64,000 bases of DNA, taken from NCBI RefSeq assembly GCF_019175385.1, contig NC_083339.1:82386120-82450119 (forward strand), written 5' to 3'. A program made the position numbers and the translations under genes. The notes under the pieces were generated by a model. The model worked only from the letters and a program-made list of their open reading frames with translations. It did no database searches and was not told the DNA's origin. This DNA is from Lycium barbarum (taxonomy: Eukaryota; Streptophyta; Magnoliopsida; Solanales; Solanaceae). Shown here one piece after another: positions 3,001-62,470 of this stretch. Positions within the stretch are counted from its first letter, which is position 1, and every line of letters starts with the position of its first letter.

Positions 3001-4221
3001 CTGACGGCCACAAGAAACACATGCACCGGTGGCTCTGTAGCACTCCCCAGGATGGTATCTGCCACAGTAAGAACACTGAGGCCTAGGTGGCCTCGTCTGA
3101 CCCGAACCCCTGTCTGTCTGCGAACCTGAAGCCCTGGAGCTCTCACCTGCTCCTGAATAACCTGGGCTGTCAAATCTGCGACCTGTAGGCTGTGGAGGTG
3201 CGCTCTGTGCCGGCTGGGATGGATGTCTGCTAGGCTGCTGCGGCTGCTGAGGCTGCCTGCCCCGAAAATCTCCAGAATACCCAGATGATCTGGCCCTCTT
3301 GGGCTGTCTCCGATCCTGGCCTCTATCAGGCTGACGCTCCCTATGCCGGTCCTCCATGCCCTGGGCGTGGGCCTGAATCCGGGCAATATCCATGCCGGGC
3401 TGAGCAGCCAATACCAAACAGCTGTCGACAAAATAACGGTCCAGCCCCATAATGTACCTGTGCATCCTGTCAGCCATAGTAGCTACCACAGCGGGTGCGT
3501 ATCGGGCCAATGAGTCGAACTCCATACTATACTCTCGAACACTGCGACCCCTCTGTCTTAGCAATAAGAATCTGTCAGCCTTGGCTCGCCGTAGCTCCGG
3601 AGGCAGAAAGTGGCTAAGAAAAGCCTGAGAAAAATCATCCCAAACTGCTGGGGGAGCGCCGTCGCCTCTGGATAACTCCCATGACTCGTACCAATTTGCC
3701 GCTACATCATATAACCGGTACGAAGCCAATGCAACTGACTCTGTCTCGGAAGCATTAATAAACTGTAAGGTGCGCCGCATCTTCCTGATGAACTCCTCGG
3801 GATCCTCCTCGGGCTTTGTCCCGAAGAACTCTGGAGGGCCACAAGTCAAGAACTCACGGGCTCTCGAACTGTCACGCCTGTAAGCCCGGTCACCTCCCTG
3901 TCCATGCCCCTGAACCTGTCCTGCCACAAGTCTAGTCAATAGCTGGACTGCCTCTCTCATAGTCTGATCCTCAGTCCCTGGCCGTGGAGCTGGAGGCTCA
4001 GGTACTGGAATCTCGGGAGCTGGCGGTGGAGCCGCCCCTCGACCTGCAGCCGCTGCTGCTCCAATATCCTCTACGTGTGGCGGGGTGGAAGAGCCCTCTG
4101 CCGGGGGCAAAATATCAGGAGCAATATGAGCATGGGCCCTGGTAACCCTCTGGGCCTGACTAGTCTCTCCCACAGCTGCTGCCTTGGCCTTTTGGGCCGC
4201 TGTCGCCTTCTTTGGAGGCAT
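1..4221 (-). CDS. gag-pol: Gag-Pol polyprotein of element A, open frame, C-terminus cut by window edge
   Basis: I checked every codon from the ATG at 4221 down to base 1: 1407 codons, no stop. In order: a basic, Pro/Ala-rich N-terminus starting MPPKK; the Gag core (about residues 128-240); two Cys/His knuckles (CX2CX3HX3C from residue 383 and a canonical CX2CX4HX4C, C401, C404, H409, C414); protease with DPGST at 502-506 in place of the commoner DSG/DTG; RT with D773 and FIDD (D837, D838); RNase H with D984, E1021, D1046; integrase with H1201-x6-H1208-x29-C1238-x2-C1241 and a DD35E triad D1271, D1332, E1368. The ATG matches the start in all sister elements and lies 2 nt after a predicted splice acceptor. 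The GPY/F module and chromodomain expected by homology with B, E and G lie left of the window. The best candidate for a recently active copy. Confidence 0.95.
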
Positions 4222-4327
4222 AACTGCAAATGTAACAATTCGTTAGGGAGGAATCATCCTGATAACACAGCTCTATCGCACGATCTAAGACAGAAAGAAG
4301 GGTAGTATCCTAAATGCCCTGTAGCCT

Positions 4328-4367
4328 CCTGTTTATAGGTGTGGTGCACAACACACCGATAAACAAG
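4328..4367 (-). promoter_or_regulatory. Leader hairpin with palindromic loop (A)
   Basis: 40 nt between PBS and gag fold as a 16-bp stem (15 of 16 positions pair, one as G-U) closed by the 8-nt loop TTGTGCAC, which contains the self-complementary hexamer GTGCAC. Equivalent hairpins occupy the same place in B, C, D, E and G. Placement and form resemble retroviral dimer-initiation stem-loops; the role here is inferred. Confidence 0.6.
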
Positions 4368-4408
4368 ACTCTACTAGACACGGTCTGTAGACATTCCGAG
4401 GACGAACC

Positions 4409-4420
4409 GCTCTGATACCA
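4409..4420 (-). promoter_or_regulatory. Primer-binding site, initiator tRNA-Met (A)
   Basis: Sense TGGTATCAGAGC, four nt (AAAG) after the LTR end, complementary to the 3' end of plant initiator tRNA-Met. It fixes the LTR boundary at 4425. Confidence 0.9.
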
Positions 4421-4424
4421 CTTT

Positions 4425-7400
4425 TGTCACGACCCAACCCCGTAGGCCATGACTAGTGCCCGATCTGGGCACTAAAACTTATTCTAGTATATGGCAGAAG
4501 CCGACAAGGCTTCATTTCAAATTCAGCTAATTTTTAGAAAAATTTTGGCAGAGTTTCCTTTGTTTTATGGACTATCCCAAATATCCTGCACGCAGAAAAT
4601 ACCAACAAAGGCCACACAGGGCCAACAAAGCAACATCTAAATATATGCGGACCGGCCGCCGCGGCGAATGGGATCGCCCAAACACAACATAAGCACCCAA
4701 CTGTACAAAAAGATCCCAACCCACAACATGTCCACAGACCTCTAACAAACCGACAGAATCCTATGACGGGACAGGGCCCCGCCGTACCCATGAACGAGAA
4801 TATACATATATAGAAGTGACAGACTATACCAAAAGATGGCTCTGAATAAAAGAGCGCTCCAAAAATAGCAGAATGAGATCCTAAGCAGACGGATCAGCAA
4901 ACCTGTCGTCGGTACCTGCGCGGCATGAAAACGCAACCCCCGAAGAAAAGGGGGTCAGTACGAAATATGTACTGAATATGTAAAGCCTGAGTTGCAGAAA
5001 CAAAATCATAACTGGTGCAGAACATACGGAAAGTAAATGGAAAATCCAAAGTATCAGATACATATTTCCAAAACATGCAGAGTGTGTACAGAACATATGT
5101 CATATCAAATCCGGCCCCTGCCAAGGGACTCGGCCGACAGAACGTGGCCACCCTCCCGACGCTGGTGCCACAACACAGAAGAATCAGAATAGGGGCATAA
5201 CCCCATGACATAACATATCATAGCAGATGGCCATAGTAAATCATATCAGAACAAGCGTACATGGCACAGCATACTCCACAAACCCATGTACGCGTATACC
5301 TGCCCCCTCACATCGAGGCACGGCGAACAATGCAGAGGATCACGCTTGACAACATATCCTGGCCCGGGCTCAGTGTGGGAAACATTGGGGTATCCACGAA
5401 TAGAGTCCTGAGAAACTAATGCAAGTAAAATATCATAAATGTTTCCATAGACTCGATGAGGCATATCAAAGACAAACCGATCCGATGAAGTCGGAAGGAA
5501 TCATAGTAAATGAGTTTCGAGTATCAAAACAATTTAGCAGACTTAATGGAATATTTAAAACCATATTAGTTAGGTAATTAAAAGGGTAGTCGAAACATTT
5601 CTTTCAAAAATCGTTCAAAGAGGGGACTTTAGTACATTAAGGGCAAAACCGGGAATAGCGGGCCCACCTCGGAACAAGCAAGGCGGTGGGCTCAAATTAC
5701 GCCCTTTGAGCTTATGGGGTCACCTATAAAGGTTCTACGGACATTCTATAGCTTTTCAAGGAGTCTAGAGAAAGTCAACATACTTTCAGGAAAAGCATAT
5801 AAAAATGGTTCAATTCTACTGAGGGAAAAACTGAGATTTTCTCTTGCGGATTCCGATGGCCAAGAAGGTCTTTTGAGGCCCGAATCCGATCCTAAAACAC
5901 TTAGACATGCCAAAAGAAGGATCGGGGTAGCTTTACATACCTTTTGAGCTTTTTAAGCCTATCCAAGCTCACTCTCCGTTTCGTCGAAAATCTGCAAATG
6001 GTCACATTTACCAATTGTAAGTTATAGATGCTACAAATTCAATTCAACTCTTATTTGTCTACCGAAATTTCGGCAGCATTTCCCCTATACATATAGCACC
6101 CCCGAGAATTCAACTCGGCCAAATCAATCAACAACAACCCAACAACAACACCCACAACAACCACAATCAATACAAAACACAATATGACATAACTAGTTCT
6201 ACTTGCCGACATAATGCCATAACCTTCACTTTAACCTTAACTTTCAAACTAAGCTCAACGATTTCACATTCATTATCAATCTAGATCACCACAACATAGT
6301 TTAACAGCATTTCATAGCATTTCCACAAAATATTCATACGATATACATAATATACAAACTTCCCGCTAAAGTCATAACTCGTCCGAAACTTCTAATCTTT
6401 AACAAACATACTCATAATATGTTTCTAGCTTCCAACTTCATCAATACTCATCATAATTTGCAACTTAATAACTTTATTTTCATAATGTCATAAAATCATT
6501 CTAAAACGACATAAGCCACTACATTCCATTTCAATGCAAACTTACATCATTTTACCTTCATCTACATTGCAAGGATCACAACAACACCACTAACATATTA
6601 AACAACATTAATTCATTCCCATTTCTTCAAGAAGTGCCACACGGCCAAGTGCCCATTTTACAAGTTCAACCAAATTAATTTAACTTCCACTTCCAATATA
6701 ATTCCCACCATAACCACAATTAGAATACAACATAAAATTCAACTCATTTTTGCCTACACCACATTGCACACACACGGCTACATATATATCTATATACCCA
6801 CTTGGCAAACTTCCATATTTCCATACTTTCTACTCATCCCTACATACTACAACACAAACAAACCTTCATAACATAATAAAAAGGGATGAGTTCTTACCTT
6901 TTTCTCCAATCTTCTTCACTTGAGTGAGTTGTCAATTTGAAGAAACAAGTCCTCTTCCTTCCAAACCAACTACACCAAGTTGTAAAGGACACTTAATTTA
7001 GTAGACAAACCACAAGATAAAAATTTTTGGAGGAAGATTTTTGAAGGTGAATTTGTGAGGGTTTGGCCGAATTCCCTTCAATTTTTGCTCTTCTTTTGTT
7101 TTGTTCTTTCTTTTCTATGCTTCTTGAATATTCCAATAGATAAGGGATTCATATATTAATTCCAACACATGGAAAATATTCATTAAATTGGTGGGTTTTG
7201 GGCCTACATGGCCGGCCATCCCTTAAGTGTTGGGCCTAAATTTTTCATTCAATTATTTTGGCCCAATGACTTATAGATCCCATTTGTAATTCCCGAAACT
7301 AATTTCCGAAATTCTAATTTTTGCCCTTGGCCTTCTTCAACACTTCCACATTAATATTCTTTCATGAACAACTCATGGGTTACATAAATTCAATATGACC

Positions 7401-7463
7401 TTATTTCCTACAAGTCCAAATTATTTCCAATTTTCCAAAGGTGTGAAAACACGGGATATAACA
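4425..7463 (-). repeat. 5' LTR of element A (3039 bp)
   Basis: Bounded in sense by TGTTATATCC (7463) and GTCGTGACA (4425). It holds a TATA-like box near 7155, a splice-donor-like site at 6898/6897 and the twin hairpin at 4921-4985. Its order of modules matches LTR J (59480-62470) and solo LTR F (49917-53098). I see no gene in it; short open frames are incidental. Confidence 0.88.
4921..4985 (-). promoter_or_regulatory. Twin-hairpin motif in LTR A
   Basis: In sense, TCAGTAC and GTACTGA form a 7-bp stem with a 7-nt loop, followed at once by a second stem CCCCC/GGGGG and then a conserved ATGCC...GCAGGT tail. The second stem is CGTCC/GGACG at the same place in B, C, E and G, so pairing is kept while sequence changes. 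Confidence 0.6.
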
Positions 7464-8405: not shown

Positions 8406-8759
8406 TGTTACACCTTGGAAATTTCAAGTCGTCGTGTAGTGAATGAACCAATGCGAGCTTAAGGGTAACATGAAGATCTTAGTACTATAAACGGATATTT
8501 AGTGGTCTTAGAATGCATACGCTAAGATTTTGAATCCATATGAATTGATGAAATAAGGAATGATAGGACAAGTGGAGTATAAGTGGGGTTTAGGAAAGGT
8601 TTCGTAAATTATTGCATTAAGAATTGTTTGGTAGGGCCTTGAGGGCGAATTATAGGGATGTTTAGATCAGTGATGAAGTACTGAACAAGTGTTAAGAAGG
8701 TTGTGTAAGGATTGGAGATCAAACGAAACAACTAGGACAACTTCGAAAAAACGGTGAGT

Positions 8760-8990
8760 TACACGACCACCTTATACAGACCGTGGAACTTTATACAGAC
8801 CGTATAAGGGTCCGAATAACACCCAACAGAAGTGGTATTTTGCCTGATGGTGAACCACGATCACTTATACGGACCGTGGAACTTTATACGGACCCTATAA
8901 GGGTCCGTGTAACCCAACAGTAACAATGTTTTCCATGGTGGTGAACCACGGACACTTATACGGACCGTATAAGTGGTCCATATAAGTCCC
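8760..8990 (+). promoter_or_regulatory. U3 palindrome array of B
   Basis: Repeated imperfect palindromes of the type TTATACGGACCGTATAA, separated by 15-40 bp, ending about 25 bp upstream of TATAAATA (9013-9020). Also in the 3' LTR at about 26540-26790. Possibly protein-binding sites of the promoter; inferred. Confidence 0.65.
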
Positions 8991-10240
8991 GATGGACTGA
9001 TTAAGTTGCAACTATAAATACATGATCCCACTTTATTTTCTCATTCTTTCCACTTCTCCACTTCTCTCCAAGCTTCTAGAGGGTTCCACACACTTCATAT
9101 ACAAGAATACAATGGAAAGCAAAGATCAATATCAAGAATTCAAGTGAATCAAGTGCAAGAAGCTCACTAGGGTCCCTCCAAGTCAAGAATTCTCCTGGGA
9201 GTGAAACTAGGGTTTTGGCTCAAGTGAAGTATTTCCACTCAGGGCTCATTCCCAAACTATCTAAGGTAAGTTTCATGATCATTCCATGTTGTTTAAGGTA
9301 TTGAGAGGCTGGAAGACTTAGATTATGAAAGGAAATAGAAAATGTGTTATAAAGATGAAAATAATCTGATTTTGAGTAGTAGCTTGAGATGAGTCATGAT
9401 CTTTGATATGTTGTGCTTATAAAAATGTTATGAATGATGTTGAGAGCATGAGAGAAATGTTAGATGAGAATGAATGTAATGATGTGCTATGATCATGATT
9501 ATGGATGACTTTGAGAGGAAATTATGGGGATTGGATAATGAGGAATTTGATAAAATTTATTGATGATGATATTATGAATGTTGTTATTAACGTTTGGGAG
9601 TTGATGTATGATATAGAGAAAGTAGTATAAATAAAGGAGACGCTGCCCAATTTTTTTTTCTAGCTTAGTTCAAACACGCTTATGTTATCGATTATCTAAT
9701 ATGAGTATGAACTCCCTTGAAGGTAAAGACGTGAGCAACGAAGAAGAACGATCCAACGATAGAGTAGCTACACAAAAATGGTATATAGGGCAAATCCTTT
9801 CCTTCTAAGGCATGAATATTCCTAATTCTCTATGATCTTCTTATATAATGGCAATTATGAGTCCATGACTATACATAGCTGTATACGCACATGACAAAGA
9901 AAGGAGATATGTTACAAGTATGATAATGGTCGGGCATGTCTCCGCGAAGGCGGGCTGCATACGATTCCACCGTGCCTAAATGGCCGGGCATGTCACCGCT
10001 AAGGTGGGCTGCTATGTTTACAATGAGCCTAGAGGGCCGGGCATGATCACCACTAGTGGGCGGCATATGATGGTTACCCGGACGCGGGTTAACGATGATT
10101 ATTTATATGATACGACAATGTATGCGCTCTGATGATACATGTACTATGATTATATATATGATGTATGTATGAAATGTATCCACCCTTAAAAGTTACGCAG
10201 GTTGTATCTTCACCTTATGACTTATGTTTCCTCTATCATG

Positions 10241-10310
10241 CCTTACATACTCAGTACAATGTTCGTACTGACATCCGTTTTCTTTGGACGCTGTGTTCAT
10301 GCCCACAGGT
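10241..10310 (+). promoter_or_regulatory. Twin-hairpin motif in 5' LTR of B
   Basis: CAGTAC/GTACTG first stem; second stem ATCC against GGAC, with one mutated pair relative to the 3' LTR copy at 37210-37281, which has CGTCC/GGACG. Confidence 0.55.
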
Positions 10311-10724
10311 AGACAGGGAGGTGATCCAGACCCGTAGAAGTTATCAGCAGACTTACAGGAGCACTCCATTATTCCAGAGGTGCTATTTGGTTTATTCTTT
10401 TGAGTATGTATATGTATATGTATTTTGGGCACGACGGGGTCTTGTACCGTCCATATGTCTAGTACTCTAGTAGAGGCTTGTAGATACGCATGTGTGGGTA
10501 GTATGGTCTCACAATGTTACTATAGTACCTATATTATTATTTTGTTAGCCGAAGGGCTTATGTATATAAAAGTAATTATGTTTCCAAATGAAAAATAGTT
10601 TTCCTATGATTGAGTATAAATTAATGAATGTACGCTTAATGAGTATGATAAGTAATAGAATGAGTGGTGCTCGGTGGTTATCCCAGGGTACCCGTCATGG
10701 CCCCTAGTTGGGTCGTGACAAAAG

Positions 10725-12046: not shown

Positions 12047-12249
12047 TGTTACACCTCGTAAATTTCTTCGTGAACGTACAACGAATAGACTAATGAAGAA
12101 TACGAGTATACGATGCCTTAATGAGAAGGGATGCCTTAATGAGAAGTACGATTTCAAAGGCAATAGGAACAAGAGATAGGTTATGCTCCAGAATGACTAA
12201 TTATAGGTTTTGAAGACTTGAAAGTTACAGATTTGCACTTTGGCCCGGT

Positions 12250-12520
12250 TGGTCGTAAAGTGAAATACGAACCGTAAAGTGGTATACGGCCCGTAAACCA
12301 CCATGTCGTATTTCAACTCACAAAACTTCAATTTTCTGTCAAATGTTCAAATGGTTAAATATGACTTGGAATACGGACCGTAAATTGAAGTACGACCCGT
12401 AAACTGCGATCGTAAATGACCATGATCCTCAGCATACCTTTTTGGTTTTGATATACTTAAATACGACCACGATATAGGGCCCGTAAACTGGAATACGGAC
12501 TGTAAAATGGGTTTACGACC
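12250..12520 (+). promoter_or_regulatory. U3 array of G
   Basis: Six or more spaced copies of TACGGnCCGTAAA and half-sites such as TTAAATACGACC. The same array is at about 20050-20320 in the 3' LTR and, in the minus sense, in both LTRs of E. Confidence 0.65.
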
Positions 12521-14030
12521 ACTGTGCACCTCAGTCACAGTTCATTCCTGTTTAGATTTTAAGTCATTAAAAGGAGACCTAACCTCATTCAATTCATTTC
12601 AACTCCACGATATTTCTCACAAGAAGCCTCTAGAATACTCTCTACTCTTCATCACAAGAAAACCAAAGGAAATTAGTGATCAACTACATAAAACCCACGA
12701 AATCAAGTGTAAGAATCACAGTAAAGTTCATCTTTCTCAAGAAAACCCAAAAGAAGTAAAGTAGGGTTTTGGTGGTAAAGGAGTAATTCCATTCAAGGCT
12801 TGTTCAACCATCATCTAAGGTAATTTTCATGACTAAAACATGTTGTTTAAGGTATTAGAAGGTTAAGACACTTGAATTGTAAAAAGACATAGGAAATGGG
12901 TCATTTATGAGTGAATAGTGTCATGGTTGGATAGTAGTTGGGTTGAACCATGAATATTGGAGTGTTGTGATTATGAATACGTTATATATGACATTTATGC
13001 CATGAAATAAGTATTAAATATGAGGAAACACGATAGTAAGCTATAACCATAAATGTGGAGAAATTGAAGGGAAATGGTGGATTGTGGTCAATGTATATAT
13101 ATATGATGATTGTGGATTGCAATATTGTGAATGTTGTTGTGAGCGTGTGGGAGTTGATATAGAATATGGGAAAAGTAGTATAACCAAAGGAAGTGTCGTC
13201 CAATTTTCCTCAGAAATAGTAGCACGTTCTTATAGTCGATTAACTAACGTAAATGCGAATTCTCTTTTGAAGGAAGAAACGTGATATCGAAGGAGAACAA
13301 GCGAACGATAGCTTAGTTAAACATCAAAGGTATGTTAGGCTAGTCCCTTCTTTCTAATGGCATGAATCTCATAGCATATTTTTTCCTCCTCTTCATGAGT
13401 TCCTATATTCCGGAAAGCTAAAAGCCTATATCTATGAATGGTAATATAAGATAAGAGATATGATATGATGATCTTAAAATGGCATGATTTTATTTATCGC
13501 TCACACTCACCTTATATGTCAGTTCCTTCAAGGTGAGGCAGAATATCAATAATTGCTCCATAATGAAATCGGGGGATCACGACCTTACGTCACCCCGATA
13601 AAGTAAAGTTGTTCATAAGCCTTATGCATGTATTATGATAAGTATGTTATGATAAGACTATTATGATGAGCATGTATGATGATGATATAACACCGCGCCT
13701 AGTTGGCCGGGCAGTCACCGCCAAGACGGGCAGCTATACGATACACCATGGCCAAATGGCATGGGCAGACACCACTAGTGGGCGGCATAAGATGATACCC
13801 CAGACGAGGGAGGCCTGGACACAGGCTATTGTTATGATTATCATACCGATCCGATATGGACGGGCAGCTTATACATTACTGCACCGCACCTATAGGGGTG
13901 GGCAGCTTATACATTGTGCATACACGATATGATGACGAGTATGAGTAAGACAGCATGAATTAATTCTGTTATACATGACAGTCAGATATAGATGTTCCAT
14001 ATTGATATTTCCATTTCTTTGTTTATGCCT

Positions 14031-14100
14031 CTCATACTCAGTACAATATTCGAACTGGCATCCGTTTTCTTTGGACGCCGTGATCATGCCCATAGGTAGA
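14031..14100 (+). promoter_or_regulatory. Twin-hairpin motif in 5' LTR of G
   Basis: First stem CAGTAC with a mutated partner GAACTG; second stem ATCC against GGAC. The 3' LTR copy (about 21846-21915) keeps both stems intact. Confidence 0.5.
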
Positions 14101-14503
14101 TAGGGAGGAGAGCTCGACCCAGACTAGCAGTAGCTGTCAGCTGATTGAAAGCACTCCTTTCTTCGAAGGTGCTTATGACGATTCTTTTGTATATATTCAT
14201 GTATACGTATTTTTGGGCATGAAGGGGTCTTTTCCCGTCCTTATGTTTAGCACTCCAGTAGAGGCTCGTAGATATGCAGTGTGGGTTAGATGGTCTCACA
14301 AGATGCTATTATATGTATATATTATTTTGATGGCCGAGAGGCAAATGTATATAAGAGTATTTATGTTTCCATATAAAATATGATTTTCCTATAATTTGAG
14401 TATAAAGCTGATAAAAGACCATTAAATAAGCAAGATGAGTAGTAGCATGAGTGGTGCTCGCCCCGGGTACCCGTCACGACCCTTAGCTGGGTCGTGACAA
14501 AAG

Positions 14504-26187: not shown

Positions 26188-27817
26188 TGTTACACCTTGG
26201 AAATTTCATGTCGTCGTGTAGTGAATGAACCAATGCAAGCTTAAGGGTAACAGGAAGATCTTAGGACTATAAGACGAATATTTAGTCGTCGTAGAATGCA
26301 TACGCTAAGATTTTGAATCCATATGAATTGATGAAATAAGGAATGATAGGACAAGTGGAGTATAAGTGGGGTTTAGGAAAGGTTTCGTAAATTATTGCAT
26401 TAAGAATTGTTTGGTAGGGCCTTGAGGGCGAATTATAGGATGCTTAGATCATTGATGAAGTACTAAACAAGTGTTAAGAAGGTTGTGTAAGGATTGGAGA
26501 TCAAACGAAATGACGAGGACAACTTCGGAAAAACTGTGAGTTACACGACCACCTTATACGGACCGTGGAACTTTATACGGACCGTATAAGGGTCCGTATA
26601 ACACCCAATAGAAGTGGTATTTTGCCTGATGGTGAACCACGATCACTTATACGGACCGTGGAACTTTATACAGACTGTATAAGGGTCCGTATAACCGAAC
26701 AGCAACAATTATTTCCATGGTGGTGAACCACGGACACTTATACGGACCGTATAGTGTTATACGGACCGTATAAGTGCTCCGTATAAGTCCCGACGGACTG
26801 ATTAAGTTGCAACTATAAATACATGTTCCCACTTTATTTTCTCATTCTTTCCACTTCTCCACTTCTCTCCAAGCTTCTAGAGGGTTCCACACACTTCATA
26901 TACATGAATACAAAGGAAAGCAAAGATCAATATCAAGAATTCAAGTGAATCAAGTGCAAGAAGCTCACTAGGGTCCCTCCAAGTCAAGAATTCTCTTGGG
27001 AGTGAAACTAGGGTTTTGGCTCAAGTGAAGTATTTCCACTCAAGGCTCATTCCCACACCATCTAAGGTAAGTTTCATGATCATTCCATGTTGTTTAAGGT
27101 ATTGTGAGGCTGGAAGACATAGATTATGAAAGGAAATAGAACATGGGTTATAACGATGAAAATAATCTGATTTTGAGTAGTAGCTTGAGATGAGTCATGA
27201 TCTTTGATATGTTGTGCTTATAAAAATGTTATGAATGATGTTGAGAGCATGAGAGAAATGTTAGATGAGAATGAATGTAATGTTGTGCTATGATCATGAG
27301 TATGGATGACTTCGAGAGGAAATTGTGGGGATTGGATAATGAGGAATTTGATAAAATTTATTGATGATGATATTATGAATGTCGTTATTAACGTTTGGGA
27401 GTTGATGTATGATATGGAGAAAGTAGTATAAATAAAGGAGACGCTGCCCATCTTTTTTCTAGCGTAGTTCAAACACGCTTATGTTATCGATTATCTTATA
27501 TGAGTATGAACTCCCTTGAAGGTAAAGACGTGAGCAACGAAGAAGAACGATCAAACGATAGAGTAGCTACACGAAAAAGGTATGTAAGGCAAATCCTTTC
27601 CTTCTAAGGCATGAATCTTCCTAATCCTCTATGATCTTCCTATATAATGGCAATTATGAGTTCATGACTATACAGAGCTGTATACGCACATGACAAAGAA
27701 AGGAGATACGTTACAAGTATGATAATGATGATGATGAATATAAGTATGAAGAATCCTAGAGTAATATAAGATGTCCATGAAGCTAATGATCCTAAGTATA
27801 ATTCCATTGATGATTTT
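26188..27817 (+). repeat. 3' LTR of element B, left part
   Basis: Starts TGTTACACCTTGG and parallels the 5' LTR: palindrome array about 26540-26790, TATAAATA 26814-26821, donor-like CTAAG/GTAAGT at 27066/27067. It is interrupted after ATTTT (27813-27817) by element C and resumes at 36623. Confidence 0.9.
27813..27817. other. Target-site duplication of C, ATTTT
   Basis: ATTTT directly before C's 5' LTR; repeated at 36618-36622 directly after C's 3' LTR. Confidence 0.88.
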
Positions 27818-28154
27818 TGTTACACCTCGAAAACTTTTCTGTTGATACGCAGTGAATAGATTATCGAAGATCACAAAGTATACGGTATATCCATAAGTAA
27901 GGAATGACATTTGATGACCCTAATTAAGATTTAAAAAACGTTCGAGAATGGGGGAGAAAGTTTGCCAAGAGGAGCCAAGGCTTACGATAGGTATCGAAAA
28001 GGAATTGCGAGTAACGAGTTAACGAGGATTTAATAATGTCTTGGAGAAGAGTGATAACGTCCCTTAGATTGGTATTGAGGTGTTAAACAAGTGCTAAGAA
28101 GGTTCCATAAGGATTGGAGATCGAACGAGTCGACTTAAACGAACTACAGATCAC

Positions 28155-28310: not shown

Positions 28311-29871
28311 AGATTGGTTTATTAAATAAAGATCCAAGTCTTATTTCATTTCATTTCCATATCCCACCCCTTCTCTCTAAAATATCTCTCTACATTTATT
28401 GCACAAGAATTCAAGAGGTATTAGTGATCAACAACATAAACTAAGTGAATCAAGTGTAAGAAACCCATTAAGAGATCATCCAAGTCAAGAAATCTCATTG
28501 GAGATGAACTAGGGTTTTGGCTCAAGTGAAGTATTTCCATCAAAATCTTGTTCCTACAACATCTAAGGTAATATTTATGGTATTTCCATGTTGTTTAAGG
28601 TATTTGAAAGTTGAAATACTTGGATTGTAGAAGGATGTAGAAAAAGTGGTCATGAATGTGGAATAGTGCCATTTTGAGTAATAGCTTGAATTGAGTCATG
28701 ATTCTTGATGTGTTGTGATATTGATATTTTATAAACGATGATAAGAACATGGGATAGGAAATGTACATGAATGAACATAGTCGTGTGTTATGACCATGGA
28801 TATGGGTGATTGGAAGCGAATTGAGAAATATAGATAATGTGGATGAATAAAGGCTAGTGTTATGATATTTTGAATGTATTATTGACGTTTGGGAGTTCAT
28901 ATATGATATGGAGGAATGTTGTATAAATAAAGGAGATGTTGTTCAACTTTCTCTAGCTTTAGTCGTGTATGCTAGCTATCGATTTCTAATGATAGATGAC
29001 TTTAATGAAGGTAGAAATATGAATGTTGAAGGAGAATGTGCAAGTGGTAGAATAGTTGAACGGAAAGGTATGTCAGGATAACCCTTCTTTCATAAGGCAT
29101 GGTTCTTTAGCCAATCTTCTAAATCTTTTATAAGTCTATGATGTCCTCCAAATGAATCTATCTTCAAAAGCTATTAAGCTTATGACTATCAATATGTTAC
29201 AATTGTATTAAGTTCCTCATATGACGAGTAATCCTATAAGGAAAGATGTAATGAACGACGATGATAGTGATAACGATACGATAACAACGATAATAGCAAT
29301 GACGATAATGATAGTGATGATAATAGTAAAGATGCTTATAAGCTATTATGTATATTTATCTATGTATGACTATTATGGAACCCCGAGCTTATAAGGCCAG
29401 GTAAAATATGTATATATTTATGTAACACGCGCGCACCTCTACAGATGGTACGGATAACCCTGAAGCCTTGGTAGGGCCAGGTATGTGTAACCTTGAGCCT
29501 TGGTTGGCCAAGTATGTATGATAACCGAACGTAGCTATAGTTGGGTAGGTGAAACACTGAACCTTCTTGGTCAGGCATGCTATATATATGATATAAATAT
29601 GTGTATGATGTAGATATGAGTATGAATACAAATACGAGTAACAATATGTATATGATATGAATATGAATAAGGATATGTATATGGATACGAGTATGGATAC
29701 GAAATGTAAATGAGTACAGATACGGATATGGATGTATGTACACGAATACGCGTTAGAAATGGAAAGTCCCTATGAAAATCAAGTAAGTGCTTATGACGAT
29801 GATTCTACTTTCTCCCATCTAATGCTATTTCTCATGTCGCTTATTATGCTTCTATAGTGATATTGATCATG

Positions 29872-29940
29872 CTTTACATACTCAGTACATTCTTCGTACT
29901 GACGTCCTTTTGTTGTGGATGTTGCGTCATGCCCGCAGGT
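29872..29940 (+). promoter_or_regulatory. Twin-hairpin motif in 5' LTR of C
   Basis: TCAGTAC/GTACTGA stem with 7-nt loop, then CGTCC against GGATG (one pair mutated). The 3' LTR copy at 36109-36171 has GTCC/GGAC intact. Confidence 0.55.
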
Positions 29941-40099: not shown

Positions 40100-42630
40100 T
40101 GTCAGGACCCGTCTAGGGGACCACGACGAGCGCCCGATGCTAGCCCACCCAGGCACCCCTTAACTTACACTTAAGCTTACATCTAGGTGAGCCACATAAT
40201 TAAACACATAATTCTACTCATTCATCATGCTAATCCCATTGGACGACAATGCCTTTATATCATCATTGGCACCTATGCCACGTCAACGTACATGATCCAA
40301 CCAGGCTATCAAAATGACATACAAAATATAGGCCGACAAGGCCAGAAATATCTAACCATATACACGTGACTACGAGCCTCTAAGAAGACCCCGCTATGCC
40401 CATAATTATATACACAAAGAATAAGTACCCAAAAGCTATGGCTCCGAATAAAAAGAAGCTCTGCTATGTAATCTCTGAGTAAGCAACTATAGATCAAGCA
40501 TGTCTCCCAGTGAACCTGCGGGCATGACGCAGCGTCCACAAATAAAAGGACGTCAGTATGAAGAATGTACTGAGTATGTAAAGCATGATCAATATCAATA
40601 TAGAAGCATAGATAGCAACATAAGAAATAACATCGAATGGGAGATGGCAATATCATCGTCATATGCACTTGCTTGCCTTTCTTAGGAACTTTCCATTTCT
40701 AATACGTGTTTGTGTACATACATCATTATCCGTATTCATAATAGTACCCGTACCATATTTCTGCTCGTATTCGTATGCATGCCCTTTATTCACATTCATA
40801 TACATAGTCATATCATATACATAATCATACCATATACATAGAATTTACATAGCATACCCGACAACGTAGGATCGGTGTTTCATACATACTTGGCTAACCA
40901 AGGCTCAAGGTTACTCATACCTGACCCTACCAAGGCTTCAGGGTTACATCTACCTGGCCCTACAAAGGTGTCAGGGTTGTCCGTACCATCTGCAGAGGTG
41001 TGCGCGCGTTAGGTAATCACATACATACTTATTTACATATCTTTACCCGGCCTCATAAGCTCGGGGTTCCATATTAGTCATACATAGACACATAAACATA
41101 ATAGTTCATAAGCATCTTTATTAATTTACATTGTTATCACAATCGTCATCAACATCATTATTACTACTATCGTCAACCATCACATTTACCTTAATAGGCC
41201 TACTCGTGATATGAGGAACTTAGTACAATCGTAACATATCGAGAATCATAAGCTTAGTAGCTTGGAAGATAGAAGAATTTGGAGAATATCATAAGCTCGT
41301 AGAAGATTTAGATAATTGGCCAAAGAACCATGCCTTATGAAAGAATGGTTAGCCTTACATACCTTTTCGTCCGACTATTTACCACTTGCACGTTCTCTTT
41401 CAACAGTTGTGTTTAAACCTTCATTAAAGTCATACTATCGTTAGAATCGACAACTAGCACTCATGGCTAAAGCTAGAGAAAATCAGAAAACATCTCCTTT
41501 ATTTATACGGCATTCATCCATAACGTATATCAACTCCCAAACGTCAACAATACATTCACAATACCATAACAATGGCCATTTATCATTTACGTTAACCACA
41601 TTAACTAGGTTTCTCAATTCGCTCCCAATTCACCCATATTCATGGTCATATCACCCGACTTCGTCCATTCATATAAAATGCCCATTTTCATGATCTTAAC
41701 ATCATTTATAACACATTCATATCACAACACAACAAGAATCATGGTTCAATTCAAACTATCTCTCAAAATGTCACTATTCATCATTCATGACCTATTTTTC
41801 TATACTCATCTAATGTCCAAGAATTTTAACTCTCAATTACCTTGAACAACATATAAATACCATAAATCTTACCTTAGATGTTGTAGGAACAAGCCTTGGT
41901 CGAAATACTTCACTTGAGCAAAAACCCTAGTTTTCCTTCAATAAGATTTTCTTGACTTGAATAATCATAATGGGTTTCCTTACACTTGATTCACTTGATT
42001 TGTGTTGTTGATGACTAATAATCCTTAAAATCTTGTGGAATAAATGTAGAGAGATGTTTTAGAGAGAAGGGATGAAATGTGGAAATGACATAATAAACTT
42101 GGATCCCTTATTTAATGACTTAAAATCTGGTCTGGAGTGAACAACACTGTGGTCGTAAACTTGGTTTACAGTCCGTATCCCAGTTTACGGACCGTCCTTT
42201 GTGGTCGTGCTTAATCATAACAGAACCAAAAACTCAGGCTAAGACGTGGTGATTTACGAACACAGTTTACGGGCCGTAAACCACTTTACGGTCCGTATTT
42301 CAGGTCGTATTTAACCATTTGATCATTTGGCAGAAAGTTGAAGTTTTGGAAGCCAAAATACGACATGGCAGTTTACGAGCCGTATACCACTTTACGGTCT
42401 GTATTTCATTTTATGTGCAACTGGCCAAAATGCAGATCTGCAACTTTCCACATTTTTAGAACCTATAATTATTCATTATGGAGCATAACCTATCTCTTAT
42501 TGCAATTGCCTTCGGAATCTTACTTAGGGTCGTCAAATGTTATTTCTTACACATGAAAACATCAGATACTCGTACTCCTTGCGGGTCCATTCACTTGGAC
42601 AACAATGGAGGATTTTTCCGAGGTGTAACA
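40100..42630 (-). repeat. 3' LTR of element E (2531 bp)
   Basis: In sense TGTTACACCTCGG (42630) to the left end, which reads TGTCAGGACC on the plus strand (one change from TGTCACGACC). U3 array about 42150-42420, TATA-like TTAAATAAGG near 42110, donor-like CTAAG/GTAAGA at 41873, twin hairpin 40515-40587. Confidence 0.9.
40515..40587 (-). promoter_or_regulatory. Twin-hairpin motif in 3' LTR of E
   Basis: Sense CAGTAC with a once-mutated partner ATACTG, then CGTCC/GGACG. The 5' LTR copy is at 48225-48298. Confidence 0.55.
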
Positions 42631-49916: not shown

Positions 49917-52900
49917 TGTTACATCCGACATTTTTGATCATTCGGAAAGTTCAAGATAAATTGACTTGTGATGAATAAGGCCACTATTGGACACTACTTG
50001 GTATGAATGTGTGAGTTATGAATTCAATGGGGTGGAATTACGAAAGGTGGCCAAGGGCAAAATTGGAATTTTGGAAACTTATTCCATGAATTACAAAAAA
50101 AAAATTAGCCAAAGTGGGCTCAATAAAATGAAATAAAGCAAGGCCCAAATGGGAGAGGCCCAACCGGCCACCACCTAGCCCAAGCCCAAGGATTTATTAA
50201 TTTTCCATGTGACAAATCCATATGATGGATAAGTATAAAGAAGCTTCAAGAATAAGGAACCAAGAACAAAAGAAAAAAAAAAGTAGAACAAGGGAGCAAT
50301 TCGGGTTTGGAGAGAAAAAAGAAAGAAAAGAAAGAAAAAAATTTTGGAGCCAAATCTTTGCTTTAAAAATCCAAGTTTTGTGAGATTTGTACTAAGCACA
50401 AGATCCTCTTCAAGTTGGTATAAATATTGTGGCAAGAAAACATTTTCATCCTCCAAGTGAAGGGCTTGAAGAAAGGTGAGAATTTCATGCTTTTGTTGTG
50501 TTAAAAAAATGATATATGTATGTTGTAGTATGTGTGAATGAATGAAAAACATGGAAATTTTGTGTGTTGAAATTTAGGGTGTGTTGGCCGAGAATGTATA
50601 TGCAATTGCATGATTTCAATGGCTTGAATTCTTGTGTAATTTAGTTGTAGTATGGTGGAAATTGTATTAGAAAGGAAAGTGGAATGAATTAGGGGAAGTT
50701 GGGAAATATAGCATGTTGGCCGTGTGGTACTATGTTGAGTATGGGATATGAATTTGATTTTGTTTGTATGCAAATTGTGTCATGGCTTTGTGAAGTAGAT
50801 TGAAGGATAATGGTTAAAGCTAAAACGAAGAAGTTGTTGGTTAAGTTGTTGTCGGAGAGTATGTCGCTTTAGCCTAATGTCTTGAAATTGTGATTGATGA
50901 TAATGAACTTGGAATATGAAAATGTGTTTATGAACTCGTATGTTGAAAGTTAGGAAAAGATCGGAAAAATGGTGATTTGATAGAAAGTTGAATGTTGTGT
51001 AGCTTATGAATATTATGTGAATATGGTATGGATGCCCCGAGGTATGTCGTAATGATCTTGATGGATAATGGATATGAAAATAATAAGTTTTGTTTGGAAA
51101 TGCAAGTTTAAAACGAAAGATGATTCGTTGTGTCGAAAGAGGGCTAATAATGCCATAGTGTATGATTTAGTGTCTATTGATGTCTGTTGTTGTTGGATGT
51201 TATCTCTGGGTTGTTGTGTTGATAAAGTAAGCCGAGCTAAGTCTCGGGGATGTCGTATATACAGAGGAAATGCTGCCGAAATTTCGGTAGGCAAGTATGT
51301 GTAAAGTTGGAATATTGAAAGAATGAAACTAACCAAATGGTAAACTTGACCATTTCCAGATTTTGGACGAAATTTGGAGTGACGCCAAGCGAGCATAAGG
51401 CGCCATCGAGGTATGTGAAGCACTTCTCTACGTTCCTAGGCATGTTCTGGATGTGGTAGGCTCGGTCGCGAGCCTTAAGTACGACTCCGTTCCCCGGAAT
51501 TCGAGACGGAAAACCGCTCCAATTCCTTCAATTCAATTGAAATTATTTTATTGCAAATTGCCTTTAAAGTGAGATTTTGTACAAAACCTCCCCCAAACGG
51601 AGTCGGAACACTTCCAAACGATTATGGATGACCTCATAAGGTCTATTAGCGATAATCTACGTATGTAGCCTCGAGTTGGTCCGAGGCGGGCCCACAAGGC
51701 CCGATATCTCCGGTAAACTTTTAAATACTTCCATTTTGGGTCCGATTTTCTCTAAAAACTTCTGAACTATTATTTTGTGTATATTATGGCTATTTTGGTG
51801 TAATTTATACAACATGATTTCTGAATATCTGAGAATCCCATTCTGATAATAATCTGTCGTGCCTTCCCAATTAGGATATAGGCGCGTACTATGCATACTA
51901 TCTGGATATTCTGATTTTGGCTCGCCGTTTGGCACCCTTCAATTTGATCGAGTCTGTATGTTGAGTCTGTAGGTAGGTGGTTTCTCATTTATCGATTCGT
52001 GTCTGTCTCAATGCATTCTTTCACTGCGACCCGGGCCAGGTTCTGTTATCGTGCATATTTCTCTGCATTGTTCACCGCGTCCCTCGGCGTACGGGCCGGG
52101 ATCTGTATGTCTGTATGATATTATGATCTGTGTATGGGGATGGCGGCAAGGATGGCATATGATCTGATCTGATTCTGTCTGTCCACCGCGTCCCGTACTA
52201 AGAGGGCCGGGTTCTGTTACCGCGCCCCCAGACAGGGCCGGGATCTGTATGAATATATGCGTGTGCCATCTGTATTTATAAAACACACGCCTCTGTATGA
52301 CTCTGTGCTACTCTGCATGCATAACTCTGTCCGATATACTTCTGTTTGTCCGTCTGTGTTACGGCTGAGTCTGTATGTCCGTATGGATTCTGATTCTGTA
52401 TGTCCGTATGGATTCTGATTCTGTATGTCCGTATGGGTTCTGATTCTGCTCGTCTGTCCGAACCACGACCCTGTTTATCTGTATAGAATACGATTCTGTA
52501 TGTCTGTCTGAATCATGACTCTGTCCGTCAGTCTGATTTATAATTCTGTACGTTATATTTCTGTGACTCCGGTTCGGACTATGTTTATATCTGTTATGTA
52601 TCTGCTTTACATACTCGGTACATTTTTCGTACTGACCCCCGTTCTTCGGGGGCTGCGCTACATGCCCGCAGGTACAGACGCACCAGGTGATACGCCGCCC
52701 GCGTAGGCTTCCGACTCTGCTATTTGAAGAGCTCCTTTGACTCGGAGCATATATTTTTGGTATATATCTTCTGTCTTCTGTACACTCTGTATGTATGGAT
52801 ATTCTGGGTACGGCGGGGCCCTGTCCCGTCATATGATTCTGTATGTCTGTAGAGGCCTGTAGATAGATGTGTGGGTTTCGGGTTTCGTCTGTATGTTAGC

Positions 52901-54269: not shown

Positions 54270-56613
54270 TGTCACAACCCAACTAGTGAGCCATGATGGG
54301 TACCCGGAGCTGACTACCGAGCACCACCCATCATGCTACCTATCATACTCGACCTGGACATACATCATTCTCATCACAAGACTTATCATAAAACAATCTC
54401 CAAGTATCTCCCAAAATATGTATATGTGCATAAGCCCACGAGGCTACAAAAAGGATGTACAAAATATACAATGAAGAAGTCACATAGCACCTACAACCCA
54501 CACATTAGTATCTACGAGCCTCTAGCTGGAATACTATAACCATAAGGACGGGACAGGACCCTGTCATGCCCCAAATATGTACACAAAGAATATACCAATA
54601 TCAATAGGCTGCACCTCGGAATTGTAGTAGGGTGCTCCTATAAATCTGTTGACTAAGCTCCTAAGCGTCTGCACCGTCTCCCTGTCAACCTGTGGGCGTG
54701 AACACAGCGTCCATAAAAGAAAATTATGTCAGTACAAACAATGTACCGAGTATGTAAGGCACGTATATCAAACATAATAAAGAAGTAAGAGAACATGAGA
54801 TAAAAAGATAACCTGTAACTGATTGCCTTTTAAGGAGGAATCATGCATTCTAACTTTTATAATAAACAACATCATATCATGTATACATATATAAACTGCC
54901 GGCCCATATAGGTACAGTGTGATCATCATTAGCCCGCGTCTGGGGTAAACATCTCAAGCCTCCCAATAGTGGTGTTTTCCCGGCCAATTAGGCACGGTGT
55001 AATCATCATCATAGCTGCCCACTACGCCTGTCGTAGTGGTGACTGCCCGGCCAACTAGACACGGTGTAATATCACATATACATAATCTAAAGCATGCATG
55101 AGGACTCAATTAAAAGTTTTAACTCTATCGAAGTGACATAAGGTCGGGAACCTCCGATTACATTATGGAATAATTCTCATCACTCTGTTTCACCTTGGAG
55201 GAACTAATATCACGAGGTAAGATAACAACAAGAAGTAACACAAATGAAAGCATAAAGATAAGATTATCAAGAGAATCATAGCATCATTATCATCATCATT
55301 ATCATGGAACATATCTCATCTCTATCTCGTAAGGAGCTCTTAAGGAACTTCCCTTTCTTCCTTTGGGATGTAAGAAGGTCATAGAGATATGGAAAAGAAA
55401 TCATAATATAGAAGTCATGCCTTTGAAAGGAGGGGACTAGCCTTACATACCTTTACATATCCTTAACGACTAAGCGTTCTCCTTCCAAGCTCACAACTCT
55501 ACATTCAAGAGAATTCGTACTACATTAGATCATTAGAAACATGCTTAAGGCTAAACTAAAGCAACTAAGGGCTAACAAAATTGGGCAGCATTTCCTTTGT
55601 TTTGACAGCTTTCTCCGTATAACGTAACAACTCCCAAACATCAATAGCGACACTCATAATATCATAATCAATAGATTTCTCAAGTTAAATATTGTTCACT
55701 TCTCAAATTCACTTCCAACCCATCCGTAACAATGAGAACAAAACAACACCATTTTCGTTCTTCATATAATCCTTCTTCAACGTTACTAACATCATTCATA
55801 AAAATTTCATACACACCTCATACTAAAAATTATGACTCAAATTAATTTACTACTCAAAGTGCCATTATTTCCATATTTGAGCTCATATTCTACATTCTTC
55901 TCCAATCCAAGTCACTCAATATCTTTAATAACATGAAATAAGTGTAAAACTCACCTTTGATTATGTAAGGATAAACTTTGGATGAATATATTTTTCTTGA
56001 GAGAAGCCCTAACTTCAATACCAATAGAATTCTTGACTTCTATCAACCCTAGAGAGCCTCTTTTTCCCTTATTCTCTTGATTCCCCTTGGATTTATGTTA
56101 ATATGATGTAGAGAATATTCTAGAGTCTTCAATACTTGTAAAGAAAGTGGAAACTGAAAAATAAGAGCAATGATTCTCTATTTTTAGGTGGAACTAGAAA
56201 GTTCCAGCGAGGCGGTTCGACGAGCGGGTCGACAATCCATCGACGTGTCGATGGTCCGTCGACTTGCGCCTGCAGATTACAGAAACATGTTGATGGTGCA
56301 CAGTGACGGTCCGTCAACATGCACTGACTGATGTCTGCAAAATGTTTTGAATTAGTTCAGATTGCGACGATTTGATCCCTTCAACTTTTAGTCCTGTAAA
56401 TTACCAGGAATACCTGCTGGTACAATTGTGTATGGGGTAAGACACTCTCTAACTTAAATTTCTCCAATGAGCTTTCATCTCTTGCCTCAAACGTCTTTGG
56501 TAATCTCAATTAGAATCATTAAGTATCCTTTCTTACTTGTAGGGGCATCACATACACCTCAACTTGCGTTAGTCTATTCACCGCACTACAACCCGAAATT
56601 CTGAGGTGTAACA
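54270..56613 (-). repeat. 5' LTR of element D (2344 bp)
   Basis: TGTCACAACCC on the left to GAGGTGTAACA on the right (plus strand). Related to LTR B across R-U5. U3 array about 56195-56335 uses a different core, GTCGAnGGnCC. Twin hairpin 54688-54762, where the second stem can re-pair as CATAA/TTATG. AAAAG (56614-56618) is the candidate target duplication. Confidence 0.83.
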
Positions 56614-59479: not shown

Positions 59480-62470
59480 TGTCACACCCTAATTCCGCTA
59501 GGGTGTGATGGGCACCCGGCCCCACATCCGGAGCCGAGCGAACTCACAGACCTTTAGGGTACACATAATCTTATTAGACTTTTAAACCAAATAAGGATAA
59601 AATACATAATAACTTTCAAAATACTCTTTCTGATGCATTCCAAATCAAACAGGATCTGTAATCGTATGGAATTTAATACATAATACAGAATGACATATCG
59701 GCTGATGAAGCCGCTTACACAACTGACATACTATACCCACGACTCTGTCTGCAAAGCCTCTAACATCAATCCAGAAAAACATACGTACAAACTCTGACTC
59801 GGCAGCACTCCAGGAGCAAATGGAGCTTGCCAACTCTGTCGGAACATCCTCTATAATAACTTCATATCATCTGGGTGTACCTGCGCGGCATGAAACGCAG
59901 ACCCCGAAGAATGGGGGTCAGTACGGAATATGTACTGAGTATGTAAAGCATGAAGTATAATAAACAGAATCATAACCGGAACAGGAGGTACAGAAAATAA
60001 GTGCAATAATCAGAACATCAGAAATGCTTACTCATATAACATAGATAATGCATGTCAAAACATATGTCATATCCGGCCCCATTATGGGACTCGGTGAACA
60101 GAATGTGGTCGCCACACCGTCACTAGCGCCACCACACATCATACTCCAGAGTGGGGAATAGCTCCGTAACATATCATATCATATCAGAATGTGCACATAT
60201 CATATCATATCATCACATATCAGAATATATGTACATGGCACAGCATACTCCACAACCCATGTACAGGTATACCTGCCTCCTCACATCGAGGCATGGCGAA
60301 CAATGCAGTGGAATACGCGTGATAACATATCCTGGCCCGGGCTCAGTGAAGGAAGCATTGAGGCATCCACGAGTGGAGTAGTGAGAAACTAATGCAATAG
60401 AAAATATAACACATTTACGGAGACTCGATATCATAGCTCAGATGACAATCCATATAAAAGAAATTGAGCGGTAATCATAGTGTATGCCTTTCGGATATCA
60501 CGATGATTTATGTCAAAATAAACTTTCTGAAATCGTTTTCATGTTTCAAAATACATTTTCGGACTTAACGAAATAATTCAACAACTGTCATATAGTAGTT
60601 AGAAGTGTAGCCAAGAGTTTATTTTGGGTTCTACTCCAAAATAAGTCAAATGGAACAATAAAGAAAAATCCGAGAACAGTGGGCCCACCTCGGGTCAAAT
60701 GAGGTGGCATATACAATTTACGTATGTTACATTTCATGATTTCACTTGTGAGAGTTTTAAGGTAGTCGGGTCCTATTTGGTAATTCTTCCAACTATTCAT
60801 ACAATATTTAGTTCAATTCTACTTAATGAAAAAGGGGCAAATTTAGCGCGGATTCCTAAGAGTAGAGTCGTCCCCAAGGCTCGTCTCCAAGCCTATCACA
60901 TCTAAGACATGCCAAGAGAAGGAAAAGTAAAACTTTACATACCTTATTCGCCTTTTATGCTCGTCCAAATTCAAATCCCGTTTCCTCCAAAATCAATAAT
61001 TGGTCACATTTACCAAATATTAATCATAAAGCTTTAAGAATTTAATCTTAACCAATACTTGTCTACATAAATTTGGGCAGCATCTCCCCTATACATACAA
61101 CATCCCCGAGATTTTAACTCGGCCAAAATATCAACAACCATACCAATAGCAATACCAATAATCATCAACAATCGATTTGAAACACATTCTAACATAAATT
61201 GTCTTCTTTTCTAAATAATGTAACAACTTCCAATCCAACTTCGCACTTTCAAATCACTGTCAACATTTCCATATTCATACACTAATTTAAGATCATTCAA
61301 TCATAGGCCAAGAACATTCCAAGAAATCTATACAATATTCAACAATTCCATCAATTCCATATTCCACCCGAATTCCTACATACGCAACAAAACTATCACG
61401 ACGCATTTTGTACTTTCAAATTCATATTCAACAACAACAATCCACACTTTAACAACTTCATTTCCATAATATCATAAAATCATACTAAAATGACATAATC
61501 TTCTACAATCAATTTCAATGCCAACTTGAACCATTTAACCTTCATTTACATTATAAGGATCACAAAACCACAACTAACATATTAAACAAAATTAATTCAT
61601 TTCCATTTTTATCTCCCACCCCACACGGCCCCTTACTCCATTTTACAACTTCAACCAAATCATCAAACTTCCATTTCCAATATAGAGTTTACAACAACCA
61701 CAACTAGAATACTACATACAATTCAACTCATATTGTCTATACAACAATACATATACACGGCCACCTACACATATACGCACCCACTTTGCAAACTTCCATA
61801 TTTCCATAAATTCTACTCATTTCTACATAGTACAACATAAACAAGCCTTCATAACATAATAAAAAGGAATTAATTCTTACCTTTTTCTCCCAACTTCTTC
61901 ACTCGACCAAGTTACTAATTTGATGAAACAAGCATCCTATCTTCCAAAATAACTACACTACGTTGTAGAGGGTCCTTGAATTAGTAGGAATACCACAAGA
62001 AAATAATTTTTGGAACAAGATTTTAAGGGGGGGGGGGGGGGGGAAATTTGAGGGGCATGGCCAAATGGCCCTATTTTTGCTCTTCTTTCTTTGTTTTTCT
62101 CCTTTCTCAATTTGTCTTGAATGTTCTATGTGTGGTATGACTCATATATGGCCCTTTTTATTAATTCATCACATGGATGAATTTACTTGGGCTTGGGTCC
62201 TTTTCATGGACCATGGCCGGCCACCCCTCTCTCTTTGGGCCTCATTTTCTCTTATTATTTTTTGAGCCCAATTGGTTATGGATCTTGTTTTGTAAATCCC
62301 GAAACTAATTTCCAAAATTCCAATTTTGCTCTTGGCCTTCCTCTGTATTTCCACATCAATATTTTTCATGAACTACATATATATTAAATAAATTCAAAAT
62401 ATGGACTTATCCCTCATAAGTCACAATTATTTCAAATTTTTTTCGAATATGTGAAATACAGGGCATAACA
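59480..62470 (-). repeat. 3' LTR of element J (2991 bp)
   Basis: TGTCACACCC on the left to GGGCATAACA on the right (plus strand). Twin hairpin 59879-59950 (second stem CCCC/GGGG), donor-like AAAAG/GTAAGA at 61881/61880, TATA-like box near 62148, and a run of seventeen G at 62027-62043 that the A copy lacks. Confidence 0.87.

What the first reader, a model, noticed from the sequence alone, without database searches (positions are those of the whole stretch)
4224..6897. Conserved leader intron predicted across several chromovirus families
Seen: A, J, F, B, C, E, G, D and I LTRs each carry a splice-donor match (AAG/GTAAGT, AAG/GTGAGT, AAG/GTAATA or close). In all but I, where I could not place a TATA box, it lies about 225-265 nt after a TATA-like box, and flanking sequence differs between families (CTAAG, AAAAG, GAAAG, CAAAG). 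Just before the gag ATG, A, C, D, E and G have TTTCAG or TTTGCAG, 0-4 nt upstream, and CCTAAC/CCTAAT/CTTAAC/CTTAAT about 25 nt before that, a good plant branch point. B has lost the AG. Inference: a 1.9-2.7 kb intron would remove U5, the PBS and the leader hairpin from the Gag-Pol mRNA, while unspliced RNA stays the genome. Introns are known in other plant LTR elements (Ogre; spliced Ty1/copia gag RNAs); I know of no description of this leader intron.
Basis: partly seen in the sequence, partly recalled or inferred. Interest (0 to 1): 0.88.

Follow-up and report, generated by a model that had tools for sequence, protein, structure and literature searches.

The report
Introns inside retrotransposon LTR leaders
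These plant jumping elements carry splice sites in their long repeated ends, and the host genome holds copies from which one of those introns is missing at exactly the predicted place, which is best explained by splicing of the element's RNA before it was copied back into DNA.

Summary
The single 2.7-kb intron must be revised: 10 of 12 LTR copies also have a second donor, AAG|GTATGT, ending a mini-exon of 51-58 nt (A: 5991-5941). Better model: exon 1 - intron 1 - mini-exon - intron 2 (holding PBS and leader) - gag. In A, exon 1 and mini-exon have no ATG; the introns have 46 and 41. The exon 1|mini-exon junction predicted from the DNA occurs in the host genome 14 times (A lineage) and 15 times (B-G lineage), control 0. 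These are LTRs lacking exactly intron 1, some in near-identical pairs, so RNA without intron 1 was reverse-transcribed, apparently repeatedly. Junctions into gag were not found (0 hits). That is expected if intron 2 holds the PBS, but leaves intron 2 supported by conservation alone. A 2005 paper predicted LTR donors in soybean Diaspora and knew no intron upstream of gag; my searches found no later report.

The parts
4425..7463 (-). Element A, 5' LTR (TGTTATATCCCG...GGGTCGTGACA)
6898..7125 (-). A exon 1 (start set 32 nt after the start of the TATA-like box, an estimate), 228 nt, no ATG
5992..6897 (-). A intron 1, 906 nt, AAG|GTAAGA ... TTTGCAG, 46 ATGs; its counterpart is absent from 14 A-lineage LTR copies in the host genome
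5941..5991 (-). A mini-exon, 51 nt, no ATG
4224..5940 (-). A intron 2 (predicted), AAG|GTATGT ... TTTGCAG, 1717 nt, 41 ATGs, holds the LTR 3' part, PBS and leader
   Evidence: no junction found
4409..4420 (-). A primer-binding site TGGTATCAGAGC
4219..4221 (-). A gag start codon, after 2 nt that follow the acceptor
61880..61880 (-). J donor 1 (G of GT), AAG|GTAAGA; mini-exon 60993-60943, its acceptor AG is lost (TTATTG); donor 2 at 60942
50476..50476 (+). H (LTR inserted in the 5' LTR of E) donor 1, AAG|GTGAGA; mini-exon 51360-51410; donor 2 at 51411
9266..9266 (+). B 5' LTR donor 1, AAG|GTAAGT; no GTATGT donor 2 match in the expected stretch of this copy
27067..27067 (+). B 3' LTR donor 1, AAG|GTAAGT; mini-exon 27522-27579; donor 2 at 27580
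12820..12820 (+). D 5' LTR donor 1, AAG|GTAATT; mini-exon 13273-13329; donor 2 at 13330; TTTCAG before gag ATG 14705
28568..28568 (+). C 5' LTR donor 1, AAG|GTAATA (weak, rank 9 of 172); mini-exon 29011-29067 (3 ATGs); donor 2 at 29068
41872..41872 (-). E 3' LTR donor 1, AAG|GTAAGA; mini-exon 41418-41363; donor 2 at 41362 (5' LTR copy: donor 2 at 49089)
55954..55954 (-). G donor 1, AAG|GTGAGT; mini-exon 55502-55451, its acceptor AG is lost (TTGAAT); donor 2 at 55450

Best explanation
These chromovirus-like Ty3/gypsy elements have a two-intron leader that begins in the LTR. Transcription is assumed to start about 30 nt after the TATA-like box and gives an ATG-poor exon 1 of about 220 nt. Intron 1 (about 0.45 or 0.9 kb) and a mini-exon of 51-58 nt follow within the LTR. 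Intron 2 runs from GTATGT at the end of the mini-exon to TTTCAG just before gag and holds the PBS and leader. Shown indirectly, from genomic DNA: intron 1 is removed at the predicted GT and AG, and the RNA so spliced is still reverse-transcribed and integrated, which it can be because it keeps the PBS. Inferred: the fully spliced RNA is the Gag-Pol mRNA. Losing 1.7 kb with the PBS and dozens of upstream AUGs would make it translatable and unable to serve as genome. RNA that keeps intron 2, with or without intron 1, is the genome. The choice at donor 2 would then sort transcripts into an mRNA pool and a replication pool.
For: Predicted exon 1|mini-exon junctions occur 14 times (A type, up to 3 mismatches) and 15 times (B-G type) in the host genome, 0 for the reversed patterns. 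blastn: in the A lineage the upstream match ends at the last base of exon 1 in 12 of 14 loci (in L042 and L043 it ends earlier) and resumes at the mini-exon in 14 of 14 (against A in 13, against J in L041); in the B-G lineage the upstream match ends within 3 nt of the donor in 15 of 15 and resumes at the mini-exon's start in 13 of 15 (L051, L053 some 15 nt inside it). A pattern open to 0-30 nt between the halves gave 6 hits, all with the predicted 12 nt; all 6 are loci already. A tree of 42 LTR rows (13 with the intron, 29 without) needs at least 8 changes of state, 7 forced by well supported branches; 0 of 200 bootstrap trees allow one. Seven neighbouring couples of intronless LTRs, taken as pairs, are 94.0-99.9% identical in the compared part. 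Donor 2 GTATGT is intact in 29 of 29 intronless loci while the mini-exon before it varies. The gag acceptor AG is intact in 21 of the 24 loci with this leader type among 30 sampled, also where the ATG lies further down (L080, L086-L088). In A, exon 1 and mini-exon hold 0 ATGs, the introns 87. The acceptor-side pattern GCAGATTTTNGACGAAACG has 5137 matches.
Against: No transcript data. No copy joining mini-exon or exon 1 to gag was found in five searches, so use of the gag acceptor is unproven. In the B-G lineage AAGGTA or a close match stands at both ends of intron 1, so there the junction alone cannot exclude deletion between repeats. Donor 1 is weak in C and D. The mini-exon acceptor AG is gone in G and J, and no donor 2 match was found in B5 and C3 (2 of 12 LTR copies). 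The C mini-exon holds 3 ATGs, those of G and D3 one each. Part of the ATG gap in exon 1 is composition. The tree program flagged long branches (L052, H, G), and the rows were not evenly sampled.
Confidence: 0.82

Rival explanations
1. Only intron 1 is real; intron 2 is not used, and gag is reached on the long leader by another route such as ribosome shunting or reinitiation.
For: All five searches for a junction to gag gave 0. Conservation at donor 2 extends to about +16, more than a donor needs, so that site may do something else.
Against: RNA without intron 2 has no PBS, so its absence from the genome is expected. The acceptor and branch motif are conserved islands in a variable stretch. A has 41 ATGs in intron 2. 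The acceptor persists where the ATG has moved.
Confidence: 0.13
2. The intronless LTRs arose by deletion between short repeats during reverse transcription, not by splicing.
For: In the B-G lineage AAGGTA or a close match occurs at both boundaries.
Against: In A the two ends share only AG, and the same junction is found in 14 A-lineage loci. All 6 hits of a pattern open to other spacings had the predicted one. The junction was predicted from splice signals before the search.
Confidence: 0.04
3. The intronless LTR is the older state and intron 1 is an insertion gained later.
For: I fetched few intron-bearing copies outside the A family and the window, so the root state is not tested directly.
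Against: Intron 1 is at the same place in both deep lineages (A, H, J and B, C, D, E, G). Intronless copies lie among intron-bearing ones with at least 8 changes.
Confidence: 0.03
4. The motifs are chance matches in AT-rich LTRs.
For: The LTRs hold 100-256 GTs each, and C's donor ranks only ninth.
Against: Predicted junctions occur 29 times in the genome with no control hits.
Confidence: 0.01

Closest known systems
Diaspora (soybean, Ty3/gypsy, Athila lineage), PMC1142308, passages seen
   Same: Splice donors were predicted in the LTR and acceptors at the gag start; the authors note that the unspliced 5' UTR would be exceptionally long.
   Different: Prediction only. They state that no intron upstream of gag was reported in any retrovirus or LTR retrotransposon. 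Here genomic copies without the intron point to real splicing, and there is a mini-exon.
Ogre intron (pea, Medicago), passages on it in PMC6317226 and PMC12786077
   Same: A plant Ty3/gypsy element with a partly spliced intron.
BARE1, EVADE and copia short-gag splicing, PMC3735527 and PMC12786077, passages
   Same: Splicing separates RNA pools and tunes gene expression.
   Different: There splicing gives a gag-only RNA from an intron in gag/pol; here the introns would lie wholly in the 5' leader and keep gag-pol together.
Foamy virus leader splicing, PMC7828637 passages; that the major donor lies in R and that gag comes from unspliced RNA is recalled
   Same: A donor early in the leader, upstream of the PBS; small noncoding upstream exons occur in env mRNAs.
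   Different: Foamy virus splices to pol and env; here gag itself would need the splice.
MLV SDARE, starts of abstracts in a search listing only
   Same: A spliced retroviral RNA packaged with the genome; that it is reverse-transcribed is recalled.
   Different: The MLV intron lies downstream of the PBS (recalled); here the lost intron lies in the LTR, so both LTRs of the new copy lack it.

Membership tests
Ty3/gypsy LTR retrotransposon | LTRs, tRNA PBS, gag, protease, RT-RNaseH, then integrase | tested here: met
   LTRs and PBS; in E (- strand) Retrotrans_gag 46771-47589, RVP_2 45319-45999, RVT_1 and RT_RNaseH 44475-45380, Integrase_H2C2 43881-44435, in that order, as separate ORF pieces
Chromovirus | Chromodomain at the integrase C-terminus | tested here: inconclusive
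   Chromo PF00385 in B (E 0.00044) and E (E 0.0052), both below the curated cut-off; SH3_Tf2-1 strong
Chromovirus, Tekay/Del clade | Place in a polyprotein tree | not tested
   The name is recalled; no tree of RT was made
Spliceosomal (GT-AG) intron | GT and AG ends, branch-like motif, precise removal (intron 1) | tested here: met
   inferred from genomic copies, no RNA
Spliceosomal (GT-AG) intron | Precise removal of intron 2 | tested here: inconclusive
   Sites conserved; 0 junctions found
Ogre-type retrotransposon intron | Intron between gag-prot and RT-INT frames | tested here: not met
   The introns described here lie upstream of gag; introns elsewhere in the element were not looked for

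The most novel reading that the evidence does not exclude
A large group of plant retrotransposons keeps its primer-binding site and leader inside an intron, so that one splice turns a transcript for good from genome into mRNA. A second intron in the LTR, which can be lost through reverse transcription, has left a natural record of spliced genomes in the host DNA.
Probability: 0.75. Interest if true: 0.9.

Novelty: new variant of a known kind. Interest (0 to 1): 0.85.

Why it matters
How an LTR retrotransposon divides one RNA between translation and replication is an open question. An intron holding the PBS would answer it in one step and would fit LTRs of 2-3 kb and leaders full of upstream ATGs. 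It would also explain a kind of LTR length variant: copies lacking intron 1 as products of spliced RNA. Related leaders and mini-exon acceptors are abundant in this genome (1139 and 5137 pattern matches), and leader introns can be tested in existing RNA data.

Tried and rejected
A single intron from 6897 to 4224: no copy joins the two ends (0), and a conserved mini-exon lies between. Copies of the fully spliced mRNA: mini-exon|gag junction searched in A, the B-G lineage, the A lineage with gaps and the abundant family, 0 each. Counting intronless against intron-bearing copies with matched patterns: the GCAG half was answered (5137); the AAAG half did not complete, so I give no ratio. Nine paper searches for an earlier report of a leader or LTR intron (two returned no paper) gave listings, from which I opened passages of five papers; the only forerunner I saw is the Diaspora prediction. 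The library has no preprints and few subscription papers, and terms such as '5 UTR' search poorly.

Full report
What is there. The window is a nest of LTR retrotransposons. I resolved LTRs A (4425-7463, -), B (8407-10720 and from 26190, +), D (12048-14499 and 19846-22323, +), C (27818-30386 and 34046-36618, +), E (3' LTR 40098-42630; 5' LTR split, -), G (54270-56612, -), H (49917-53098, +, inside the 5' LTR of E) and J (about 59300-62472, -). D sits in B's internal part, C in B's 3' LTR, E in G (read). Gag, protease, RT-RNaseH and integrase domains are present in pieces; chromodomain matches in B and E are below the curated cut-off, so 'chromovirus' is likely but not proven here. A looks young: the copy taken as its other LTR, just outside the window, is identical over the 501 bases compared.

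They are there. In A the donor is AAAAAG|GTAAGA at 6897 and the acceptor TTTGCAG ends at 4224; two bases follow, then the gag ATG. By a simple consensus score with recalled weights the donor is best or joint best in A, B, D, E, G and J, fifth of 256 in H and ninth of 172 in C. Exon 1 is ATG-poor and ATGs become common at the donor: 5 against 93 in 200 nt either side, summed over eight families; part of this is composition, since a dinucleotide model expects 16.7 before the donor.

What was missed. Inside the LTR, 10 of 12 LTR copies examined have a second donor, AAG|GTATGT or GAG|GTATGT (B5 and C3 had no match). In the nine copies measured a mini-exon of 51-58 nt lies before it, with an acceptor or its remains at its start: TTTGCAG in A, TTTCCAG in H, TTGAAG or ATGAAG in B, C, D and E; in J and G the AG is lost, and the start there is set by homology. 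In A the parts are exon 1 228 nt (0 ATG; its start is estimated), intron 1 906 nt (46), mini-exon 51 nt (0), intron 2 1717 nt (41), then 2 nt to the gag ATG. In C5 the mini-exon has 3 ATGs, in G and D3 one each.

The test. If intron 1 is spliced from RNA that keeps the PBS, reverse transcription would give LTRs without intron 1. I searched the host genome for the junction predicted from A. It occurs 14 times with up to 3 mismatches, 0 for the reversed pattern. In the 14 loci exon 1 runs straight into ATTT...GACGAAAC or GGCGAAAC (GATGAAAC in L038), then GGTATGT. blastn against A and J ends at the last base of exon 1 in 12 of 14 (L042 and L043 end earlier) and resumes at the mini-exon in 14 of 14. 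For the B-G lineage I left the spacing open (8-38 nt); 15 of 15 hits read CATCTAAG|G(T/C)AGAA, control 0, and blastn to D-, C- or E-like LTRs ends within 3 nt of the donor in 15 of 15 and resumes at the mini-exon's start in 13 of 15; L052 is 96% identical to D before the junction and 92% after it. A second open pattern for the A lineage gave 6 hits, all with the predicted spacing and all among the 14. I conclude that intron 1 is removed by splicing and that the product is mobile: L048 and L055 have the junction, a PBS (one mismatch in L048), TTTCAG and an ATG in order. PBS matches lie downstream within reach in 5 of 15 B-G loci; none was seen downstream in the 14 A-lineage loci, where in A itself the PBS would lie just beyond the fetched flank. 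Seven neighbouring couples, taken as pairs of LTRs, are 94.0-99.9% identical in the compared part. The tree of 42 rows needs at least 8 changes between the two states; rows were not sampled evenly, long branches were flagged and elements recombine (L039 is 90% like A after the junction and 71% before it), so this is a rough count.

Intron 2. GTATGT is intact in 29 of 29 intronless loci, none dropped, whereas the last bases of the mini-exon vary (the window rows and L090 in that table were picked for having the donor). At the other end, 16 leaders show CYTAAY and TTTCAG as the conserved islands between the leader block and the ATG (rows were anchored on TTTC or TTTGC, so only the AG and the branch motif are free tests: AG intact in 13 of 16). 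Among 30 sampled PBS loci, 24 have this leader type and 21 of those keep AG; L069, L079 and L089 do not. In L080 and L086-L088 the acceptor is kept although the next ATG lies further down. Against this, five searches for a copy spliced into gag found none. Such RNA lacks the PBS and could enter the genome only by another machinery, so the absence is weak evidence.

Mechanism. Shown indirectly, from genomic DNA: splicing of intron 1 and reverse transcription of the product. Inferred: removal of intron 2 makes the Gag-Pol mRNA and takes away the PBS, the leader and the upstream ATGs, so the decision at donor 2 sorts RNA between translation and replication. Where transcription starts, whether the R region includes donor 1, where polyadenylation lies, and how intron 2 is kept in genomic RNA are not known.

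Known work. A 2025 review says plant LTR elements generally lack introns, with Ogre and EVADE as notable exceptions (PMC12786077, passages). The BARE paper names Bagy2, Ogre, CRR and BARE1 as spliced; its passages mention no intron upstream of gag (PMC3735527). The Diaspora paper predicted LTR donors and acceptors at the gag start in an Athila-lineage element and says that no intron upstream of gag had been reported (PMC1142308, passages). My ten paper searches covered open-licence PubMed Central papers only. I therefore call it a new variant of a known kind, retroelement splicing, with the place of the introns new as far as these searches go.

Noticed in passing
L068 and L084, about 200-270 nt after the PBS: The leader acceptor TTTGATTTCAG is followed about 60 nt later by GCAG|GTAAGC or GCAA|GTAAGT and no gag ATG there: perhaps a further leader exon, or a non-autonomous family.
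   Followed up: no
A 5940, H 51411 and the same place in other LTRs: Conservation at donor 2 runs on to about +16 (GTATGTRAGGCTA..CC), more than a splice donor needs.
   Followed up: partly
LTRs, about 140 nt before donor 2: A block like GGAAATGCTGCC(G/C)AAATTT recurs inside intron 1 in A, G, H and J, and in changed form in B, C, D and E; no function known to me.
   Followed up: no
L064: A different leader type also has an acceptor-like AG directly before an ATG (CTCTCGCAG|ATG), so leader introns may be wider than the families studied.
   Followed up: no
L039 and L040: These intronless LTRs are about 90% like A after the junction but only about 71% before it, as if recombinant.
   Followed up: partly
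window 37694-38060: A short + strand stretch ending in an LTR-like terminus (GGTTGGGGTGTGACA) between the B 3' LTR and the remains of G.
   Followed up: no
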